Shown: positions 6,381 through 13,733 of the stretch, piece after piece
Layout of the letters: every line of letters begins with the position of its first letter
Position numbering within the stretch: the first letter of the stretch is position 1
Source: an uncultured Mucispirillum sp.
Lineage (GTDB): Bacteria > Chrysiogenota > Deferribacteres > Deferribacterales > Mucispirillaceae
Length of the DNA stretch: 64,000 nt
Assembly: GCA_944324465.1 (NCBI GenBank)
Contig: CALUWI010000001.1
Span: 97,023-161,022 of the forward strand
Direction of reading: 5' to 3'
Program-made: the position numbers and the translations under genes
Notes under the pieces: generated by a model
Databases searched by the model: none
Told to the model about the DNA's origin: nothing
The model's input: the letters and a program-made list of their open reading frames with translations, nothing else

Positions 6381-6884
6381 TTACTTCATAGTATGCAAAG
6401 CACCAGCTTTTGTCATTGGTCTTGTTTTATGACATACTATACAGTTTTTAGCTGGTGTATTGCTCCAGTTGCCTACAGGGATTACACAGCTTGTGCCGCA
6501 GTGTGAGCCTGGGTCAGTTTGAACTCCTGATGCAAAGTTAGCTCTTGCATGGCTCATTGGATATGCTGTTTCATGACATGAATCACAGAAATCTTGTTTA
6601 TGACATGTCTGGCATGTTGTCCTGTTCCACCTTGATTCTAAACCGTGTGTTTTATTCACAAAAGTTACTGTATGGCTTCTTGGGGCTGTATCTTCATGAC
6701 ATGCTATACATTCACTTCTTTCTTCGTGGCACATTAAACATTCACTCATATTAGTTTTAGCTGCCTGCCCGTGCTGTTTCTCCCAAGTGCTGTTATGTGT
6801 GGACGGTTTTGTGCTGTCTACTGCAAAGGATACACTTGCTATAAGTAAAGAGAATAAACCGATTATTAATAATTTCATTTTCAT
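6381..6884 (-). CDS. Periplasmic pentahaem c-type cytochrome
   Basis: A 167 aa protein with an N-terminal Sec signal (about residues 1-21) and five CxxCH motifs: CLMCH, CIACH, CQTCH, CDSCH and CIVCH. A further Cys pair (CGTSC) lacks the histidine. Extra His residues could give bis-His ligation. It should be a periplasmic electron carrier. It is the last gene of the molybdoenzyme operon, 12 nt after the outer-membrane barrel gene, so it probably passes electrons to or from the molybdoenzyme/Fe-S pair or towards the outer membrane. The family beyond small multihaem cytochrome c is not assigned. Confidence 0.88.
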   Translation of the reverse strand: MKMKLLIIGLFSLLIASVSFAVDSTKPSTHNSTWEKQHGQAAKTNMSECLMCHEERSECIACHEDTAPRSHTVTFVNKTHGLESRWNRTTCQTCHKQDFCDSCHETAYPMSHARANFASGVQTDPGSHCGTSCVIPVGNWSNTPAKNCIVCHKTRPMTKAGALHTMK

Positions 6885-6896
6885 TATATATTCCCC

Positions 6897-8441
6897 CTAC
6901 CAGATAAAGTTCGCCCAAATACTTACTGTATGAATATCAGGCTGGAAGTCCGCACTTTTAAATAAATCTGCATATTCATAAGTATAATCAAGCTGTAATA
7001 CACACCAGTCTACTGGACGATACATTGCACCAATGTATGCCATTGTTGTATTTTCATTTCTTTCGCTTAAATTCAGCATTTCTTCGCCATACTGTGGGTA
7101 TGATTTAATTGGGCTGTTTCTATACTGGTAATTCTGCACATTCACACCTAACCAGGCTTCTATTCTGTCGGTAAATACCTGAGTCATTCTAAATCCACCC
7201 ATTACTTTTGAGTTGCTGTCCTGTCTTTTGTATTCTGCTACATCGTACCAGTCTACTATTAAGCTTAAGTAGTTGTTTTTATGGATTAAGCCTACAAAAT
7301 CTACATTACCAAATACTCTTTGATAATCTCTATCGCCGTATGCTTCGCTAAAGTTAAATCTTGTTTCCCAGCCTAAGCCTACTATTACATAGTCTGTGAT
7401 ACCTTGTGTCAGCATTACGCCACCCATTACATATTCACTACTTCCACCTAACATATCTTCATACATTGATACATATGGGTTAATGTCCCCTGTATTTTTG
7501 TCATACTGACCTGCTATATATGCTGATATTCCTGTACGGCTTGCATCAATATTAGCATCTAAGCCTGCTTCATAAAGCATTGCTTTACCTACTATTGCTC
7601 CTTCAAGATATATATTTGATGATATTATATCTGGAAAGTTTAAGTTCTGGTCTATTCTGCCTTTGGCTACATGTGTATTGAAATCGCCGCCATCTTCATG
7701 CATAAAGTAGTTGTATTCTGCTCTGATTTTTGTGCCGCTTATAGATACAGGCACTTCTATTGCTGCACCTACTACAGATGTTTTTAAGTTGCTGTAATAG
7801 CTGACAGGTAAACCACCATATACATCAAGTTTGAAATAGTCGCATGTATCAAAATGAAGGCTGCCGCCGTCTATTTTATACATATCTAAGTTGTTTAAGT
7901 AGATTCTTCCCGCTGCTATATCTGTATATGGCACTACTTTTTTAAACTCTACATTAGCCTGGTATATTCTAAAGTTACCGTCATACTGACCGTTTAAGCG
8001 GGTATATTCATCATATTTTCTTGATGTATAAAGTCCGTCATAAAACTGGTTGTATCCGCTTCCCTGCTGTGTTGCTGATATGCCGTCCATTGTGCTGCCG
8101 CCAATACTTGGAAGGCTGTCGTAAGCTCCACGCATATTTAAGTTTACATTCACTGTGCCTTGTCCCAGTTTTGCATCACTTAATCTAAGTCTTGCATACT
8201 GATAGATTGACCAGTCTTCATCTTCGCCAAATTTCATTGTGGCTCTTGTTGTTAACCCTATTTTTAATATCCCTGCATCACCAAAATCTAAGCCGTTAAG
8301 ACTTGCTTTGATACCGTTGGCATTTACATGCTTACTCCATGAGTCTGGTGTAACATAAGCATCACCAACATAGGCAAAAGCAGGAAGTGATAACGCTAAC
8401 AAACATGTTAATGTATATAACATCAGCCTTTTCATAGGCAT
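6897..8441 (-). CDS. Outer-membrane beta-barrel protein of the respiratory operon
   Basis: A 514 aa protein with a signal peptide (cleaved near LPAFA-YV), many alternating amphipathic strands and a C-terminal aromatic strand ending in WANFIW, as expected for BAM-inserted barrels. The second ATG (8435) has better spacing to AGGAG than the first. I see no N-terminal CxxC of the MtrB type. Its place between the chaperone and the multihaem cytochrome genes suggests a dedicated porin or an electron conduit. It may let substrate through or hold a haem protein in the outer membrane; sequence alone does not decide. Confidence 0.8.
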   Translation of the reverse strand: MPMKRLMLYTLTCLLALSLPAFAYVGDAYVTPDSWSKHVNANGIKASLNGLDFGDAGILKIGLTTRATMKFGEDEDWSIYQYARLRLSDAKLGQGTVNVNLNMRGAYDSLPSIGGSTMDGISATQQGSGYNQFYDGLYTSRKYDEYTRLNGQYDGNFRIYQANVEFKKVVPYTDIAAGRIYLNNLDMYKIDGGSLHFDTCDYFKLDVYGGLPVSYYSNLKTSVVGAAIEVPVSISGTKIRAEYNYFMHEDGGDFNTHVAKGRIDQNLNFPDIISSNIYLEGAIVGKAMLYEAGLDANIDASRTGISAYIAGQYDKNTGDINPYVSMYEDMLGGSSEYVMGGVMLTQGITDYVIVGLGWETRFNFSEAYGDRDYQRVFGNVDFVGLIHKNNYLSLIVDWYDVAEYKRQDSNSKVMGGFRMTQVFTDRIEAWLGVNVQNYQYRNSPIKSYPQYGEEMLNLSERNENTTMAYIGAMYRPVDWCVLQLDYTYEYADLFKSADFQPDIHTVSIWANFIW

Positions 8442-8452
8442 TTGCTCCTTAA

Positions 8453-9130
8453 TTAATTATTTAGAGAACTTAAAAACTCATAATCGTATTTTAAATACTC
8501 TCTTAAAAAGTGAGTTAATGGTAAATAAAAGATTTTTCCCTGCTCAAACATTTCCATTTTATTTATAAATTCATCAATATAATTTAATAAATGGTCTTTA
8601 AGAAATTCTTTTTGAGCATTTATTACTATATTATAGTTGCCTTCTTTACCATCCTGCATACATCTAACTGTTTTTCTTGATAAATATGACAAGAACATAA
8701 GTTCATAGGCAATAAAGTCTTCTGGTTCATTAGAATTATGAAAATCTGTATCAAAACCAAAATTTTTATATAACTTTAAAACCTGTTCCCTTGATTCTTG
8801 ATTTACAAGGTGCTCTAATGATGTATAGTATGATTCAGAATTTGGAACACTGTCAGTTAATGCAAATATTCTTGTAAATGCTCTAAGATTATCTAATTTA
8901 AATTCATCTAAGTCTTTACCTTTTAATGAATTATATTTATCAATAAAATCTTCAAGCTTTTCAATTTCTTTTCCTGCAGTTTCTGATATATCTTCCAAAT
9001 CTTTTAATAATGGTAAGATTTCCTGCATCATTTTATATTCATTTTCACTTACAGGCTCTAAAAAAAGTTTCGCAAAAAAAGCATAAATTACTTCTCTGCC
9101 GCCATGTATTTCTTGTAAATCTACTGCCAT
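8453..9130 (-). CDS. TorD/DmsD-family molybdoenzyme chaperone
   Basis: A 225 aa, all-helical cytoplasmic protein. The N-terminal GGREVIYAFFAKLFLEP and the central PNSESYYTSLEHL segment fit the TorD/DmsD/NarJ family, which binds the Tat signal of molybdoenzymes and holds them for cofactor loading before export. Neighbours confirm the role: the Fe-S subunit gene lies 49 nt upstream and the catalytic subunit before that. Its client is very likely the Tat-dependent enzyme starting at 13159. Confidence 0.85.
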   Translation of the reverse strand: MAVDLQEIHGGREVIYAFFAKLFLEPVSENEYKMMQEILPLLKDLEDISETAGKEIEKLEDFIDKYNSLKGKDLDEFKLDNLRAFTRIFALTDSVPNSESYYTSLEHLVNQESREQVLKLYKNFGFDTDFHNSNEPEDFIAYELMFLSYLSRKTVRCMQDGKEGNYNIVINAQKEFLKDHLLNYIDEFINKMEMFEQGKIFYLPLTHFLREYLKYDYEFLSSLNN

Positions 9131-9179: not shown

Positions 9180-9797
9180 TTAGTTTCCGTTGTTAAGGGT
9201 TACTGTTCTTGTGCGTTTTTTAATAAGCATTGAAGGTCCAGTTTCATTTGTGTTATTTGCATACGCATAAGGGAAATCACTTGCATTTAACTGAACAGCA
9301 TCATGGTATTTTGATTGTAAAGTTTCAAAATCACCAAAATCAAGTGCGTGTCCAACACATGATGCAACACATACAGGTTTTTCACCTTTTTCAACACGGC
9401 TCATACACATATCGCATTTCTGCATAGGGTGAGCAATTGTCCATGAAGATTTTTGTTCTGGTTCTTGTTTATCATCAGCAATGTGTGGTGCTGCAAATGG
9501 ACATGCAGTAATGCAAAGCTGTAAGCCTATACATTTACTTCTATCTACATAAACAATACCATTGTCTTTTTTAATTATTGCATTTTGTGAGCATGCAGCC
9601 TTACATGCTGGCTCTTCACAGTGGTTACAGCTCATTGCAAGGTTAAACATAGCTATTGGGCCGCCATCTGCTTTATATGTATTTACTTTTCTCCAGCGAA
9701 CTGGTCCTGGGTTTACCTGATTCCAGTCTTTGCAAGAAACAGAACATGAATTACATGACATACATCTAGTTTGGTCAAAATAAAATGCATAACGCAT
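9180..9797 (-). CDS. Four-cluster Fe-S electron-transfer subunit (DmsB/PhsB-like) with a Cys-to-Leu change
   Basis: A 205 aa ferredoxin-type subunit that carries electrons to or from the molybdoenzyme. Cys groups: residues 12-22 (CMSCNSCSVSC), 57-69 (CNHCEEPACKAAC), 89-99 (CIGLQLCITAC) and the distal CDMC...CVASC group. The third group should read CxxCxxCxxxCP, but residue 92 is Leu (codon at 9522-9524), so that cluster has only three local Cys ligands. In E. coli DmsB, replacing the equivalent Cys102 converts a [4Fe-4S] into a [3Fe-4S] cluster, and NarH naturally has Trp there. No membrane anchor gene follows, so the quinol link must be made elsewhere. Confidence 0.92.
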   Translation of the reverse strand: MRYAFYFDQTRCMSCNSCSVSCKDWNQVNPGPVRWRKVNTYKADGGPIAMFNLAMSCNHCEEPACKAACSQNAIIKKDNGIVYVDRSKCIGLQLCITACPFAAPHIADDKQEPEQKSSWTIAHPMQKCDMCMSRVEKGEKPVCVASCVGHALDFGDFETLQSKYHDAVQLNASDFPYAYANNTNETGPSMLIKKRTRTVTLNNGN

Positions 9798-9812: not shown

Positions 9813-12800
9813 TTATTTATTTTTTATCCATACCATAGCAGACTGTTGTCCGTTACCATGGTCTACCCTTGAAGGTCTTTGAGCCATAAGTGTGTTAGCG
9901 CAGCCACCATCATCTACACCATCAACTGGGTCTGGGTCATACCAGCAGCCTTGGTGAAGTCCAATAAAGCCTCTTACTACCCTGTCAGTAACTCTTGCAA
10001 TAACACGAACATCACCTACTGGGTTACCTATTGTGATTAATTGACCATCAGCAATGCCTTCTGCTGCTGCGTCCTGGTCATTCATCCATACTTCACTCCA
10101 AGAAGCTACTTTCTCTTTTCCAGCTATTGGCTGACCATTTGCAATTGTTTGGTTAAGACGAGTAAGGCTTGCAGTTTCACCAACTTTAACTTCCTGAGCT
10201 GCACCTATGTTGCCATACTCATTCCAGTCATTACCAGAATATAAGCCACCGCCTTTAATTCTGTGAGTCAGTTCTCTTAAATAAGCATTTTCTGATTGAG
10301 ATGAGTGAGCTCTATATCTATCATGAGTAGTAGTTAAGAGATAACCTTTGCTCATATCTAATGTATTTTTACCATTCATTACACCATAAGCTTCATTGAA
10401 GTAGTCTTCATAAGCATAGTATAAAGGAATAGGATAAACTAATGGGTCTCCTTCAAAGTCTTTGTTAGCCTGACCTGTTGGAAGTCCTTGACTTGCAAGA
10501 ACACCATGCCATTGTTCAAAACGGTGTTCATAGCAGTAAACAAGTGATTCAGAATATACATGGAATCTGCCAGATGATTTTGGACATGCATCAATAGTTG
10601 CCTGCAGCCATTGAGCACCATATCCTGCTTTTTCATTTGTTTCAATAGTTGGAACAAATGCAGTAGACATATCTCCAGCAAGATATTTATCAAGATTGTC
10701 CCTTAAAGTAGTTTTAGTTACTGAAACAGGTGCATATTCATTTGCTGTTTTTGGTGCATATGGGTTATTAATAAAATCTTCCCATTTTTTACCATAGTAT
10801 AAGCTTGAAGAATTAACACTTGCTTTACCAAATGCTTCTTTTACTAAGTCTTCAATTTGCTGATTAGGAACGCCGCCAGTAAATTTAGTTGCAAGTTCAT
10901 CACCAACACCTTTTAATCTACCTACTGCTTTTAAAAAGTCATTTGTAAAGTTCCATTGAGATTTAGCTTGACCTGGAGCATTACTTACAACTGGAATATA
11001 TAATGAGTTACCAAGAGAGATACTAATAATATCTTCCTGTTCCCAAGTAGTAGCTGCTGGTAACACATAGTCTGACCATCTTGGAGATGGAGATAAGAAG
11101 TTATCAAATGATACCATGCAGAATGTATCTGGATTATCAGGTTCTGTAGAACCTAAATCAAGAGCTTCAAACATTTCTCTTGCATCATTTGGGTCCATAT
11201 GCTGGTTCATAGGAATGTTACCACCAGAGTTTAAGATAAATCTGAAACCTGCTTTTAATGGTTTACCATCTTCACCATTTTTCCATTGATAATATCCATC
11301 TGCTGTTGTTTTTATTTTGCCATCAGCTTCTCTATCCCAAGTATAAAGAGCTTTTGCACCACCATCTTCATAATAAACACCAGATTCAGAATTTGCATAA
11401 TCCCAGTCAGGTATATATTTTGCATTATAACCATTTGCAGCTAATTGGTCTTTAAATGCAAATTTAATAGCATTATGCCATTGTGTACATGAAATAACTG
11501 GTGTTGTTGGATTGCTTGGAACATCTGGACGGCTTACCCTTACACTTAATGTACCTTTTGCACTGCCTCTAGAACCACCAAAAGCTCTACCTAAACCATC
11601 ACCTGTCATACCCCAAGTTTTAGAAAGAATGAGAAGTGCTTGTAAAGCAAACATATTAATTACACCGTTTGCCTGCTTTTGCTGAGCACCGCACCATTCG
11701 CTGTATATTGGATGGTTATCTGGGTTAAAATAAAGTTCTGCTAAATCTTTAATAGCCTGTTCTGGTATACCAGTTATTGCAGATGCCCATTTTGGTGATT
11801 TAGGTGTTAAGAAATCTTGTTTAGTTTGATATTTTGTTGCATCTCCTGCTGCTGCAGTATAAGAGCATATAGAACCATTTCTTTTAGCTTGTTTAGTTGC
11901 AAACTGATTAGCTACATAGTTACCGCTGTATGCAGCTTTTGTAAGCCTGTCATCATTACCCATAATATAAGCAGAAAGTGATTCACCTTTAGGAACTGCA
12001 TTTACTTTTACAGAACCATCTAATGGGTCTGTATCAAAAGTAATAGCTCCTGTTTCTTTATTTACATAATATTCTGGAGAATCAAAGAAACCGTATACCA
12101 TTGTATCAATATAGTTTACATCTAATTGTAATTTTTTATCTACATCGTTTCTAATATTACCATCTACATCAAATGTGTTTGTTATCATATGATGGAGCAT
12201 ACCAAGAATTAATGCTGTATCTGTATAAGGTCTCATTTGATACCAAGTATCAGCAAGAGTTACACCAGTATCAACAAATTCTGGTCCAATAAACCATACT
12301 TTACCGCCGCGTTGTTTCATCATTTCAACAGAACGGATTTCTGAATATGCTGAGCTGTTTACTGTTGATAATGCATTTGAACCCCATAATACAATATTGT
12401 TAACTGCACTTGCTACTGTATTAGCATCTGCACTGCCACCATTATAACCAGTGTAGCCTGTTCCGAAGAATGATTTTTGGTGGAAAGAATAGTCATGAGT
12501 ATATTTTGCATAACCACCCATTAAGCTGGCTGCTGCTGATGTGCTGATACCAGTCCAAATACCAGTATAGCCGCCACCCTGCCAGCTTGAAGAGTAAGCA
12601 CCGCATGCATAAATTGAATGGAATGCTTCTGGACCGTATTTATCAGTAATAGCTTTATGTTTTCTAGCTATTTCATCTAAAGCCTGTTCCCATGAAATGC
12701 GAACGAAACCTGATAAATCACCACGTTTTTTAGTTTGTTTTAATGGATATTTTAATCTTCCTGGATGATATAAACGGAATTTATAAGCACGACATTTTGC

Positions 12801-13159
12801 ACATGCTCTTGAAGATGAGCAGTTAGGGTTATCGCTGTCCATTACCTGACCAGTTGTATCTATAACATTTTCATCTGTAACGAAACGCTTAATAACACCA
12901 TTTTTTACATGTGCTTTTATAAGACATTTTGCACCGCAGTTGTGACCGCTTGTGCCATAACGAATATAATCGGGAGTTAAATCTTCTTCATCTGTGGAAC
13001 CAGTACCATCCCCCCCCCGTAGATGATTTCAGAGCCGCTGTCTTTAGAGCAGCCATACATAGCAGCCATTGCACCAAGAGCTGCTGTGCCTTTTAAAAAG
13101 GAACGTCTTGAAACTGAGCTTTCTTCTAATGATTCTAAAACATTAGTTTCTTTTCCCAT
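9813..13159 (-). pseudogene. Tat-exported DmsA-family molybdopterin oxidoreductase, frameshifted at a G9 tract
   Basis: Periplasmic bis-MGD catalytic subunit. The start at 13159 gives a Tat signal (SRRSFLKG, residues 17-24). That frame stops about 60 codons in. A nine-G run (13010-13018, minus strand) precedes a second frame that stays open to 9813. Read with one extra G it gives a single protein of about 1115 aa. The shifted frame holds HNCGAKC and CSSSRACAKC (Fe-S ligands), YHPGRLKYPLK and ISWEQALDEIA, all DmsA-like. The other frame has no other disruption, so this may be a sequencing error or a phase-variable switch rather than decay. The substrate (DMSO/TMAO, S- or N-oxide, polysulfide or other) cannot be told. 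Confidence 0.85.
13010..13018 (-). repeat. Homopolymeric G9 tract inside the molybdoenzyme gene
   Basis: Nine C on the plus strand, falling between the Tat signal and the first Fe-S motif. With nine the gene is out of frame; seven or ten would restore it. Such a run stands out strongly in DNA this AT-rich. Confidence 0.95.
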
Positions 13160-13733
13160 ATTCTATGCCTCCAAATTTTTTTGTATTCTTAATATACTAA
13201 AAAATAGAACTAAATCAACTATAAAATATCCATTTTTTCTCCAAATTTAACATTTTTAACATTTTTGTCAATTTTAACTATATATTTTTTCTTAATATTA
13301 TCAATAATTAAGATATTTTTTGTCTTATTATCATATAAAATTTATATGGATAATATAAAATTTTATAAATATTTTCTTTAAATAATTAAGTATTATATTT
13401 ACAAGAAAATACATCATAACAAATTGATTTATTATACAATTTTCTACTTTTAAATTTTTATAGATTTATAATATTTCGTAAAAATATAAAATGATTATAA
13501 AATAAATATATGCAGATATATTATTAATGATAAAGCAAATACATATTGGTTAAAGTTTATTCATTTATTAAACTTTTTTAAAATATATGAACAAGCCTGC
13601 TTATGCTTTATAATTATACAACATATCACATATAATAGTGATTACTTCAGCTATTCTATTTTTATATTAAAACTAATTTTGCAGTTTTTAGTATTATATT
13701 TAAATATCTATTACATTTTTTAATAATAAAAAA
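13160..13733. other. 574-bp AT-rich intergenic region upstream of the molybdoenzyme operon
   Basis: No ORF or RNA structure recognised. It must contain the promoter of the minus-strand respiratory operon. A TTGACA (reverse complement of 13266-13271) lies near two ATGTTAAA repeats, but I see no good -10 and no convincing FNR box. Confidence 0.5.

What the first reader, a model, noticed from the sequence alone, without database searches (positions are those of the whole stretch)
13010..13018. G9 tract frameshift: possible phase-variable respiratory enzyme
The Tat signal and the catalytic body lie in different frames joined at nine G on the coding strand. Everything else in the gene is intact. 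Homopolymeric G tracts are classical phase-variation sites in AT-rich host-associated bacteria. With seven or ten G the enzyme would be exported; with nine it stops about 60 residues in. A sequencing or assembly error in the run is the main alternative.
Basis: partly seen in the sequence, partly recalled or inferred. Interest (0 to 1): 0.65.

Follow-up and report, generated by a model that had tools for sequence, protein, structure and literature searches.

The report
Phase-variable respiratory enzymes in Mucispirillum
A gut bacterium (genus Mucispirillum) appears to turn a whole set of respiratory enzymes on and off at random by gaining or losing single G's in a run of nine or ten G's near the start of each gene, a trick until now known mainly for surface structures of pathogens.

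Summary
The G9 tract is real, and the frameshift is as described: Tat signal and 1,009-aa DMSO-reductase-type body lie in different frames, and nine G stop translation at residue 60. It is not an isolated error.

Orthologs in four other Mucispirillum species and one sister-genus genome keep the tract at the same codon (9,9,9,10,9 G; the 10 is in frame), with bodies under purifying selection (dN/dS about 0.13 even between two "off" copies). Thirty family members in seven genomes carry 8-10 G there: 12 on, 18 off; all are in frame at 9 or 10 G, never at 8 or 11.

The genome has 0 G7, 2 G8, 24 G9, 8 G10 and one G11 runs. Free-living relatives show the reverse order. Other tracts hit methylases, hsdS, glycosyltransferases and promoter spacers of lipoprotein genes. 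Slipped-strand phase variation is by far the best explanation, though no length variation inside one population could be shown.

New points: the switched genes are a set of paralogous respiratory enzymes with shared upstream motifs. Their leaders are homogenised up to the tract while their bodies diverge. The operon also encodes an outer-membrane barrel and a pentaheme cytochrome, suggesting surface-exposed reductases. I found no earlier report in the library searched.

The parts
13010..13018 (-). G9 tract (phase switch), codons after ...EIIY; in frame with the body at 7 or 10 G
12977..13159 (-). off-state product: 60-aa frame with Tat signal SRRSFLKG and conserved Cys (lipobox-like MYGC), ends shortly past the tract
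   Evidence: NCBIfam TAT_signal_seq; Cys kept in the family leaders
9813..13009 (-). catalytic body, DMSO-reductase type molybdopterin oxidoreductase (dmsA-like), open in the other frame (its first codon takes the last G of the tract); Fe-S Cys motif HNCGAKC and Mo-ligand Ser (DYS) present
9180..9797 (-). dmsB-like 4Fe-4S ferredoxin subunit
   Evidence: Pfam Fer4_11; NCBIfam TIGR02951 below its cut-off
8453..9130 (-). TorD/DmsD-type chaperone
   Evidence: Pfam Nitrate_red_del; TIGR03482 and TorD models below cut-off
6897..8441 (-). outer-membrane beta-barrel protein (514 aa); 98-100% identical copies lie in several dms operons of the genome
   Evidence: AlphaFold model of about 22 strands, matches OprD/AlgE/FimD barrels
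6381..6884 (-). secreted multiheme cytochrome c, five CxxCH
13310..13326 (.). palindrome AAGACAAAAAATATCTT upstream of dmsA, shared by paralogs (14 sites in genome against 3 for the reversed control)
13247..13271 (.). inverted repeat TTGACA...TGTTAA upstream of dmsA, shared by paralogs (possible regulator site)

Best explanation
The tract is a slipped-strand (simple-sequence) phase switch. During replication the G run gains or loses single G's, mostly moving between 9 and 10. At 10 G (or 7) the Tat signal is fused to the molybdoenzyme body and the enzyme is exported by Tat and probably lipid-anchored. At 9 G translation stops after 60 residues and no exported enzyme is made (internal starts would lack the Tat signal and the N-terminal Fe-S motif). 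The same switch sits at the same codon in five paralogous dmsA-type genes of this genome, and before the Tat motif in a sixth. Each has its own dmsB-type partner (and a torD-type one where the operon was read far enough), so each cell would express a random subset of reductases under similar promoters. Shown here: tract, frames, conservation across species, mixed states, purifying selection, shared leader and upstream motifs. Inferred: slippage in vivo, reversibility, export, surface location, substrate and benefit.
For: Tract at the same codon in orthologs G003 (9), G002 (9), G006 (9), G009 (10, in frame) and sister-genus G011 (9). Thirty family copies in seven genomes: lengths 8/9/10 = 2/22/6, 12 on and 18 off, every gene in frame at 9 (16 genes) or 10 (14), never 8/11. 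Length shows no dependence on which length is in frame (Fisher p 0.23). Body dN/dS 0.13-0.14 between off-state orthologs. Bodies of the same genes: 88.5 kb without a G/C run above 6; leader Gly codons outside the tract are GGG in 8 of 182. Genome-wide spectrum 0/2/24/8 for G7/G8/G9/G10, similar in other Mucispirillum, reversed in free-living relatives. Other tracts lie in classic contingency classes: two DNA methylases, hsdS, glycosyltransferases, RgpF, MBOAT, and in TTGACA/-10 spacers before lipoprotein genes, in 9 of 10 Mucispirillum and 0 of 6 order relatives.
Against: No two assemblies of one species were available, so no within-species length variation is shown. Mismatch repair (MutS1, MutL) is intact, which could lower slippage rates. 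The ortholog tract is 9 in five of six genomes, so direct evidence of switching at this very locus is one 10-G species. Most assemblies compared are MAGs, which report only a consensus length.
Confidence: 0.88

Rival explanations
1. Sequencing or assembly error in the homopolymer; the true gene is in frame.
For: Homopolymers are error-prone, and nothing here gives raw reads.
Against: The same tract at the same codon, also out of frame, in independent assemblies of other species and a second genus; 12 on / 18 off among 30 copies. An error cannot create a conserved G8-10 run where GGG is 6% of Gly codons.
Confidence: 0.05
2. Programmed recoding: RNA polymerase or ribosome slips on the G run, so the 9-G gene still yields a constant fraction of full-length enzyme and the frameshift is a fixed device.
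For: 14 of 18 off copies need the same +1; tract conserved; transcriptional slippage on homopolymers is known (literature cited in PMC3711429).
Against: The 30 copies include 12 in-frame genes; orthologs of this very gene differ (9 against 10); 4 copies need the opposite shift. The length distribution ignores the frame. Many unrelated genes and promoter spacers carry the same tracts, where recoding makes no sense.
Confidence: 0.05
3. Pseudogene in decay.
For: Frameshift near the 5' end.
Against: 1,064-codon body without further lesion, dN/dS 0.13 between off-state orthologs, catalytic Ser and Fe-S Cys kept.
Confidence: 0.01
4. The tracts are slippage-prone but not selected as switches: they persist only because gene conversion spreads one leader, tract included, through the family.
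For: Most leaders are homogenised within Mucispirillum genomes (93-99% nt) up to the tract; MMR is intact.
Against: Tracts of the same length occur in many unrelated genes and promoters across the genus; in-frame length is always 9 or 10; G011 leaders have diverged (51-81% nt) yet keep the tract.
Confidence: 0.15

Closest known systems
Poly-G contingency genes of Campylobacter jejuni (and Neisseria, Helicobacter)
   Same: Intragenic poly-G of about 8-11, single-base switching between on and off frames, dozens of loci per mucosal genome, targets including methylases and glycosyltransferases (partly from general knowledge; review PMC11868660)
   Different: Phylum Deferribacterota; MMR intact; a whole paralogous set of respiratory molybdoenzymes is switched. 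The review states that no core phasome pattern beyond surface proteins and surface modifiers has emerged
Promoter-spacer phase variation (porA/opc type, Neisseria; from general knowledge)
   Same: Poly-C/G between -35 and -10 before lipoprotein genes in this genus
   Different: A separate class in the same genome, not the mechanism at this locus
Extracellular DMSO reductase of Shewanella (dmsEFABGH; PMC5013071)
   Same: Operon with Tat DmsA, DmsB, chaperone, an outer-membrane barrel and a multiheme cytochrome
   Different: Gene order differs; cytochrome has 5 hemes; barrel model has about 22 strands and matches porins and ushers rather than a named DmsF/MtrB; body scores far below the NCBIfam dmsA cut-off
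DMSO reductase family (dmsA/ynfE, TorA, bisC)
   Same: Molybdopterin and dinucleotide-binding domains, Ser Mo-ligand position
   Different: Only 273 bits against a 778-bit dmsA/ynfE cut-off; the body is longer than those enzymes (1,009 aa ORF against about 800); substrate unknown

Membership tests
Simple-sequence (slipped-strand) phase-variable gene | Repeat inside the ORF whose length sets the frame | tested here: met
   G9; 7/10 in frame
Simple-sequence (slipped-strand) phase-variable gene | Repeat longer than chance, conserved beyond codon need | tested here: met
Simple-sequence (slipped-strand) phase-variable gene | On and off states both found among homologs, rest of gene under selection | tested here: met
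   12 on, 18 off; dN/dS 0.13
Simple-sequence (slipped-strand) phase-variable gene | Length variation within one population, reversible expression | not testable with these tools
   no reads or second strain of the species held
DMSO reductase family molybdoenzyme | Molybdopterin and Molydop_binding domains above gathering score | tested here: met
   76.1 and 59.9 bits
DMSO reductase family molybdoenzyme | Ser Mo ligand (DYS) aligned with Rhodobacter DMSO reductase | tested here: met
   aligned; that this Ser is the ligand is general knowledge
dmsA/ynfE subfamily (TIGR02166) | Curated cut-off 777.7 bits | tested here: not met
   273.3 bits for the body: a relative, not filed as DmsA
Shewanella-type extracellular DMSO reductase | Outer-membrane barrel and multiheme cytochrome in the operon | tested here: met
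Shewanella-type extracellular DMSO reductase | Barrel homologous to DmsF/MtrB, decaheme DmsE, surface location | tested here: inconclusive
   no Pfam family for the barrel; 5 hemes only; location not testable here

The most novel reading that the evidence does not exclude
A 'leader-switch cassette': a shared promoter, Tat leader and G tract is copied among paralogous operons by gene conversion, ending at the tract, so that any downstream reductase body becomes independently phase-variable while all stay under one regulator. Each cell of a gut commensal then carries a random combination of surface-exposed respiratory reductases (bet-hedging on electron acceptors, phage or antibodies).
Probability: 0.45. 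Interest if true: 0.78.

Novelty: new variant of a known kind. Interest (0 to 1): 0.66.

Why it matters
Phase variation is known mainly for surface structures and methylases of pathogens. Here a gut commensal lineage of another phylum seems to switch its anaerobic respiratory repertoire gene by gene, with the switches carried on a homogenised leader. Genes for a DMSO-reductase-like system of M. schaedleri were among the few up-regulated in colitis (PMC5285517; not mapped to this ortholog), so the on/off state may bear on gut inflammation. It also warns that annotation may call these genes pseudogenes, and that transcript counts mislead when the gene is out of frame.

Tried and rejected
MMR loss as the driver: rejected, MutS1 and MutL are intact. 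Earlier report of phase variation in Mucispirillum or Deferribacterota, or of a phase-variable DMSO reductase: not found in the library; the Campylobacter 81-176 dmsA papers that I read do not mention a tract. Within-species replicates: the GTDB scan returned records that match the genomes already searched, so none. Barrel as MtrB/DmsF: only generic porin/usher matches on a moderate model (pLDDT 66). One Pfam call failed on wrong coordinates.

Full report
Observation. The + strand carries nine C at 13010-13018, so the minus-strand gene that starts at 13159 has ...ATC TAC GGG GGG GGG ATG... The start frame holds a Tat signal and ends after 60 codons; the catalytic frame is open to 9813 and needs 7 or 10 G. 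The next longest G/C run in the window is 5. The finding is exact.

Organism. Relatives found by protein search are uncultured Mucispirillum genomes and Candidatus M. faecigallinarum; the window lies on contig 1 of a 2.42-Mb, 31-contig genome.

The gene. The body matches Molybdopterin and Molydop_binding and the DMSO/TMAO reductases of Rhodobacter by sequence, with the Ser of DYS aligned to the Mo-ligand Ser (the ligand role is general knowledge). It scores far below the dmsA/ynfE cut-off, so it is called dmsA-like only. The operon continues with a dmsB-like ferredoxin, a TorD-type chaperone, a 514-residue barrel (predicted about 22 strands, pLDDT 66; matches OprD, AlgE, FimD) and a secreted cytochrome with five CxxCH. 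With a conserved Cys after the Tat hydrophobic stretch in the family leaders, this resembles the outer-membrane DMSO reductase of Shewanella; surface location is inference.

Error or pseudogene? Orthologs at 97, 91, 88-89, 87 and 64% identity carry the tract at the same codon with 9, 9, 9, 10 and 9 G. Ten G puts the G009 gene in frame. Between this gene and off-state orthologs dN/dS is 0.13-0.14. Neither an error in this assembly nor a decaying gene predicts this.

The family. A leader search and a reading of each locus gave 30 family members with a G8-10 tract after the leader (...YGCSKD..EIIYGGG) in seven genomes, one of them with a single copy. Lengths 8/9/10 occur 2/22/6 times; 12 are in frame, 18 are not; 14 need one more G and 4 one fewer. 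All are in frame at 9 or 10, none at 8/11, so one step of a tract living at 9-10 suffices to switch. The copies are not fully independent (orthologs and homogenised leaders), so the chance figure is only indicative. Length shows no dependence on the in-frame length. In this genome five such genes are seen (two on, three off), plus a sixth molybdoenzyme with the tract before the Tat motif (C1:20420).

The genome. Exact G7/G8/G9/G10 counts are 0/2/24/8 here, 5/6/33/8 in G006 and 1/2/32/3 in G003; in order relatives of other families 61/9/1/0 (G015) and 36/7/1/0 (G020). Genic tracts lie in two DNA methylases, an hsdS-type gene, glycosyltransferases, RgpF and MBOAT proteins, a sulfatase-domain protein, a radical-SAM protein and lipoproteins. 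A second class sits between TTGACA and a -10-like box about 40-80 bp before lipoprotein genes; it occurs in 9 of 10 Mucispirillum and in none of six order relatives. This is a phasome.

The leader. Within a Mucispirillum genome the main 141-nt leaders are 93-99% identical while bodies are 30-51% identical in protein, and similarity drops at the tract; two leader subtypes (the C23 and C10 groups) are 70-85% identical to the rest. Paralogs in one genome are closer than orthologs between species: in G006 98.6% overall and 100% at third positions, against 92.9% and 83-89% for G003/G006 orthologs. That is concerted evolution. The barrel gene at the other end is 98-100% identical between operons of this genome. 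Upstream, the paralogs share a palindrome (AAGAYA-N5-TRTCTT, 14 sites against 3 in the control) and a TTRACA...TGTTAA repeat, which suggests common regulation.

Mechanism. Slipped-strand mispairing at the tract, giving random on/off of each reductase, is the best explanation (0.88). Shown: sequence, frames, conservation, selection, mixed states. Inferred: in-vivo slippage, reversibility, export and benefit. MMR genes are intact, so rates may be modest. Recoding by slippage of RNA polymerase cannot be excluded as a leak but does not explain the in-frame copies, the opposite shifts or the promoter tracts.

Known and new. The mechanism is known. A recent review finds no core-phasome pattern beyond surface proteins and their modifiers (PMC11868660). 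I found no report of phase variation in this genus, including in its genome paper (PMC5285517), nor of a phase-variable DMSO-type reductase, in a library that lacks most subscription journals. New here are the phylum, the functional class and the shared leader.

Noticed in passing
G000 C1:84887, C16:9007, C20:32282, C16:38250, C7:70229, C7:82080 (loci L059, L076, L053, L051, L065): Poly-C/G in the spacer between TTGACA and a -10-like box, most about 40-80 bp before lipoprotein genes: a second, promoter-type phase-variation class, genus-wide.
   Followed up: partly
window 6381-8441; L075 8237-10291; L070 19073 onward; G000 C25:1498-3033: The barrel gene (and, where it could be read, the start of the pentaheme cytochrome gene after it) is 98-100% identical between separate dms operons although their dmsA bodies are only 26-48% identical: concerted evolution at both operon ends.
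   Followed up: partly
G000 C10:84818 against G003 C16 (L070, L112): Upstream region and leader nearly identical between species but bodies only 60% identical in protein, with a mosaic identity profile: suggests body exchange by recombination between paralogs.
   Followed up: partly
G000 C9:111-126 kb (L068, L069): Seven G tracts in 14 kb of surface-polysaccharide genes (RgpF, GT2, GT9, MBOAT, FdtA): a likely phase-variable glycan locus.
   Followed up: partly
G000 C4:104297-105007: A third MutS-like protein of about 590 aa, found only in genomes of this family in the set searched.
   Followed up: no
G000 C10:73860 (L070): G10 tract at the very 3' end of a response-regulator/histidine-kinase fusion gene; length would change only the last residues.
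   Followed up: no
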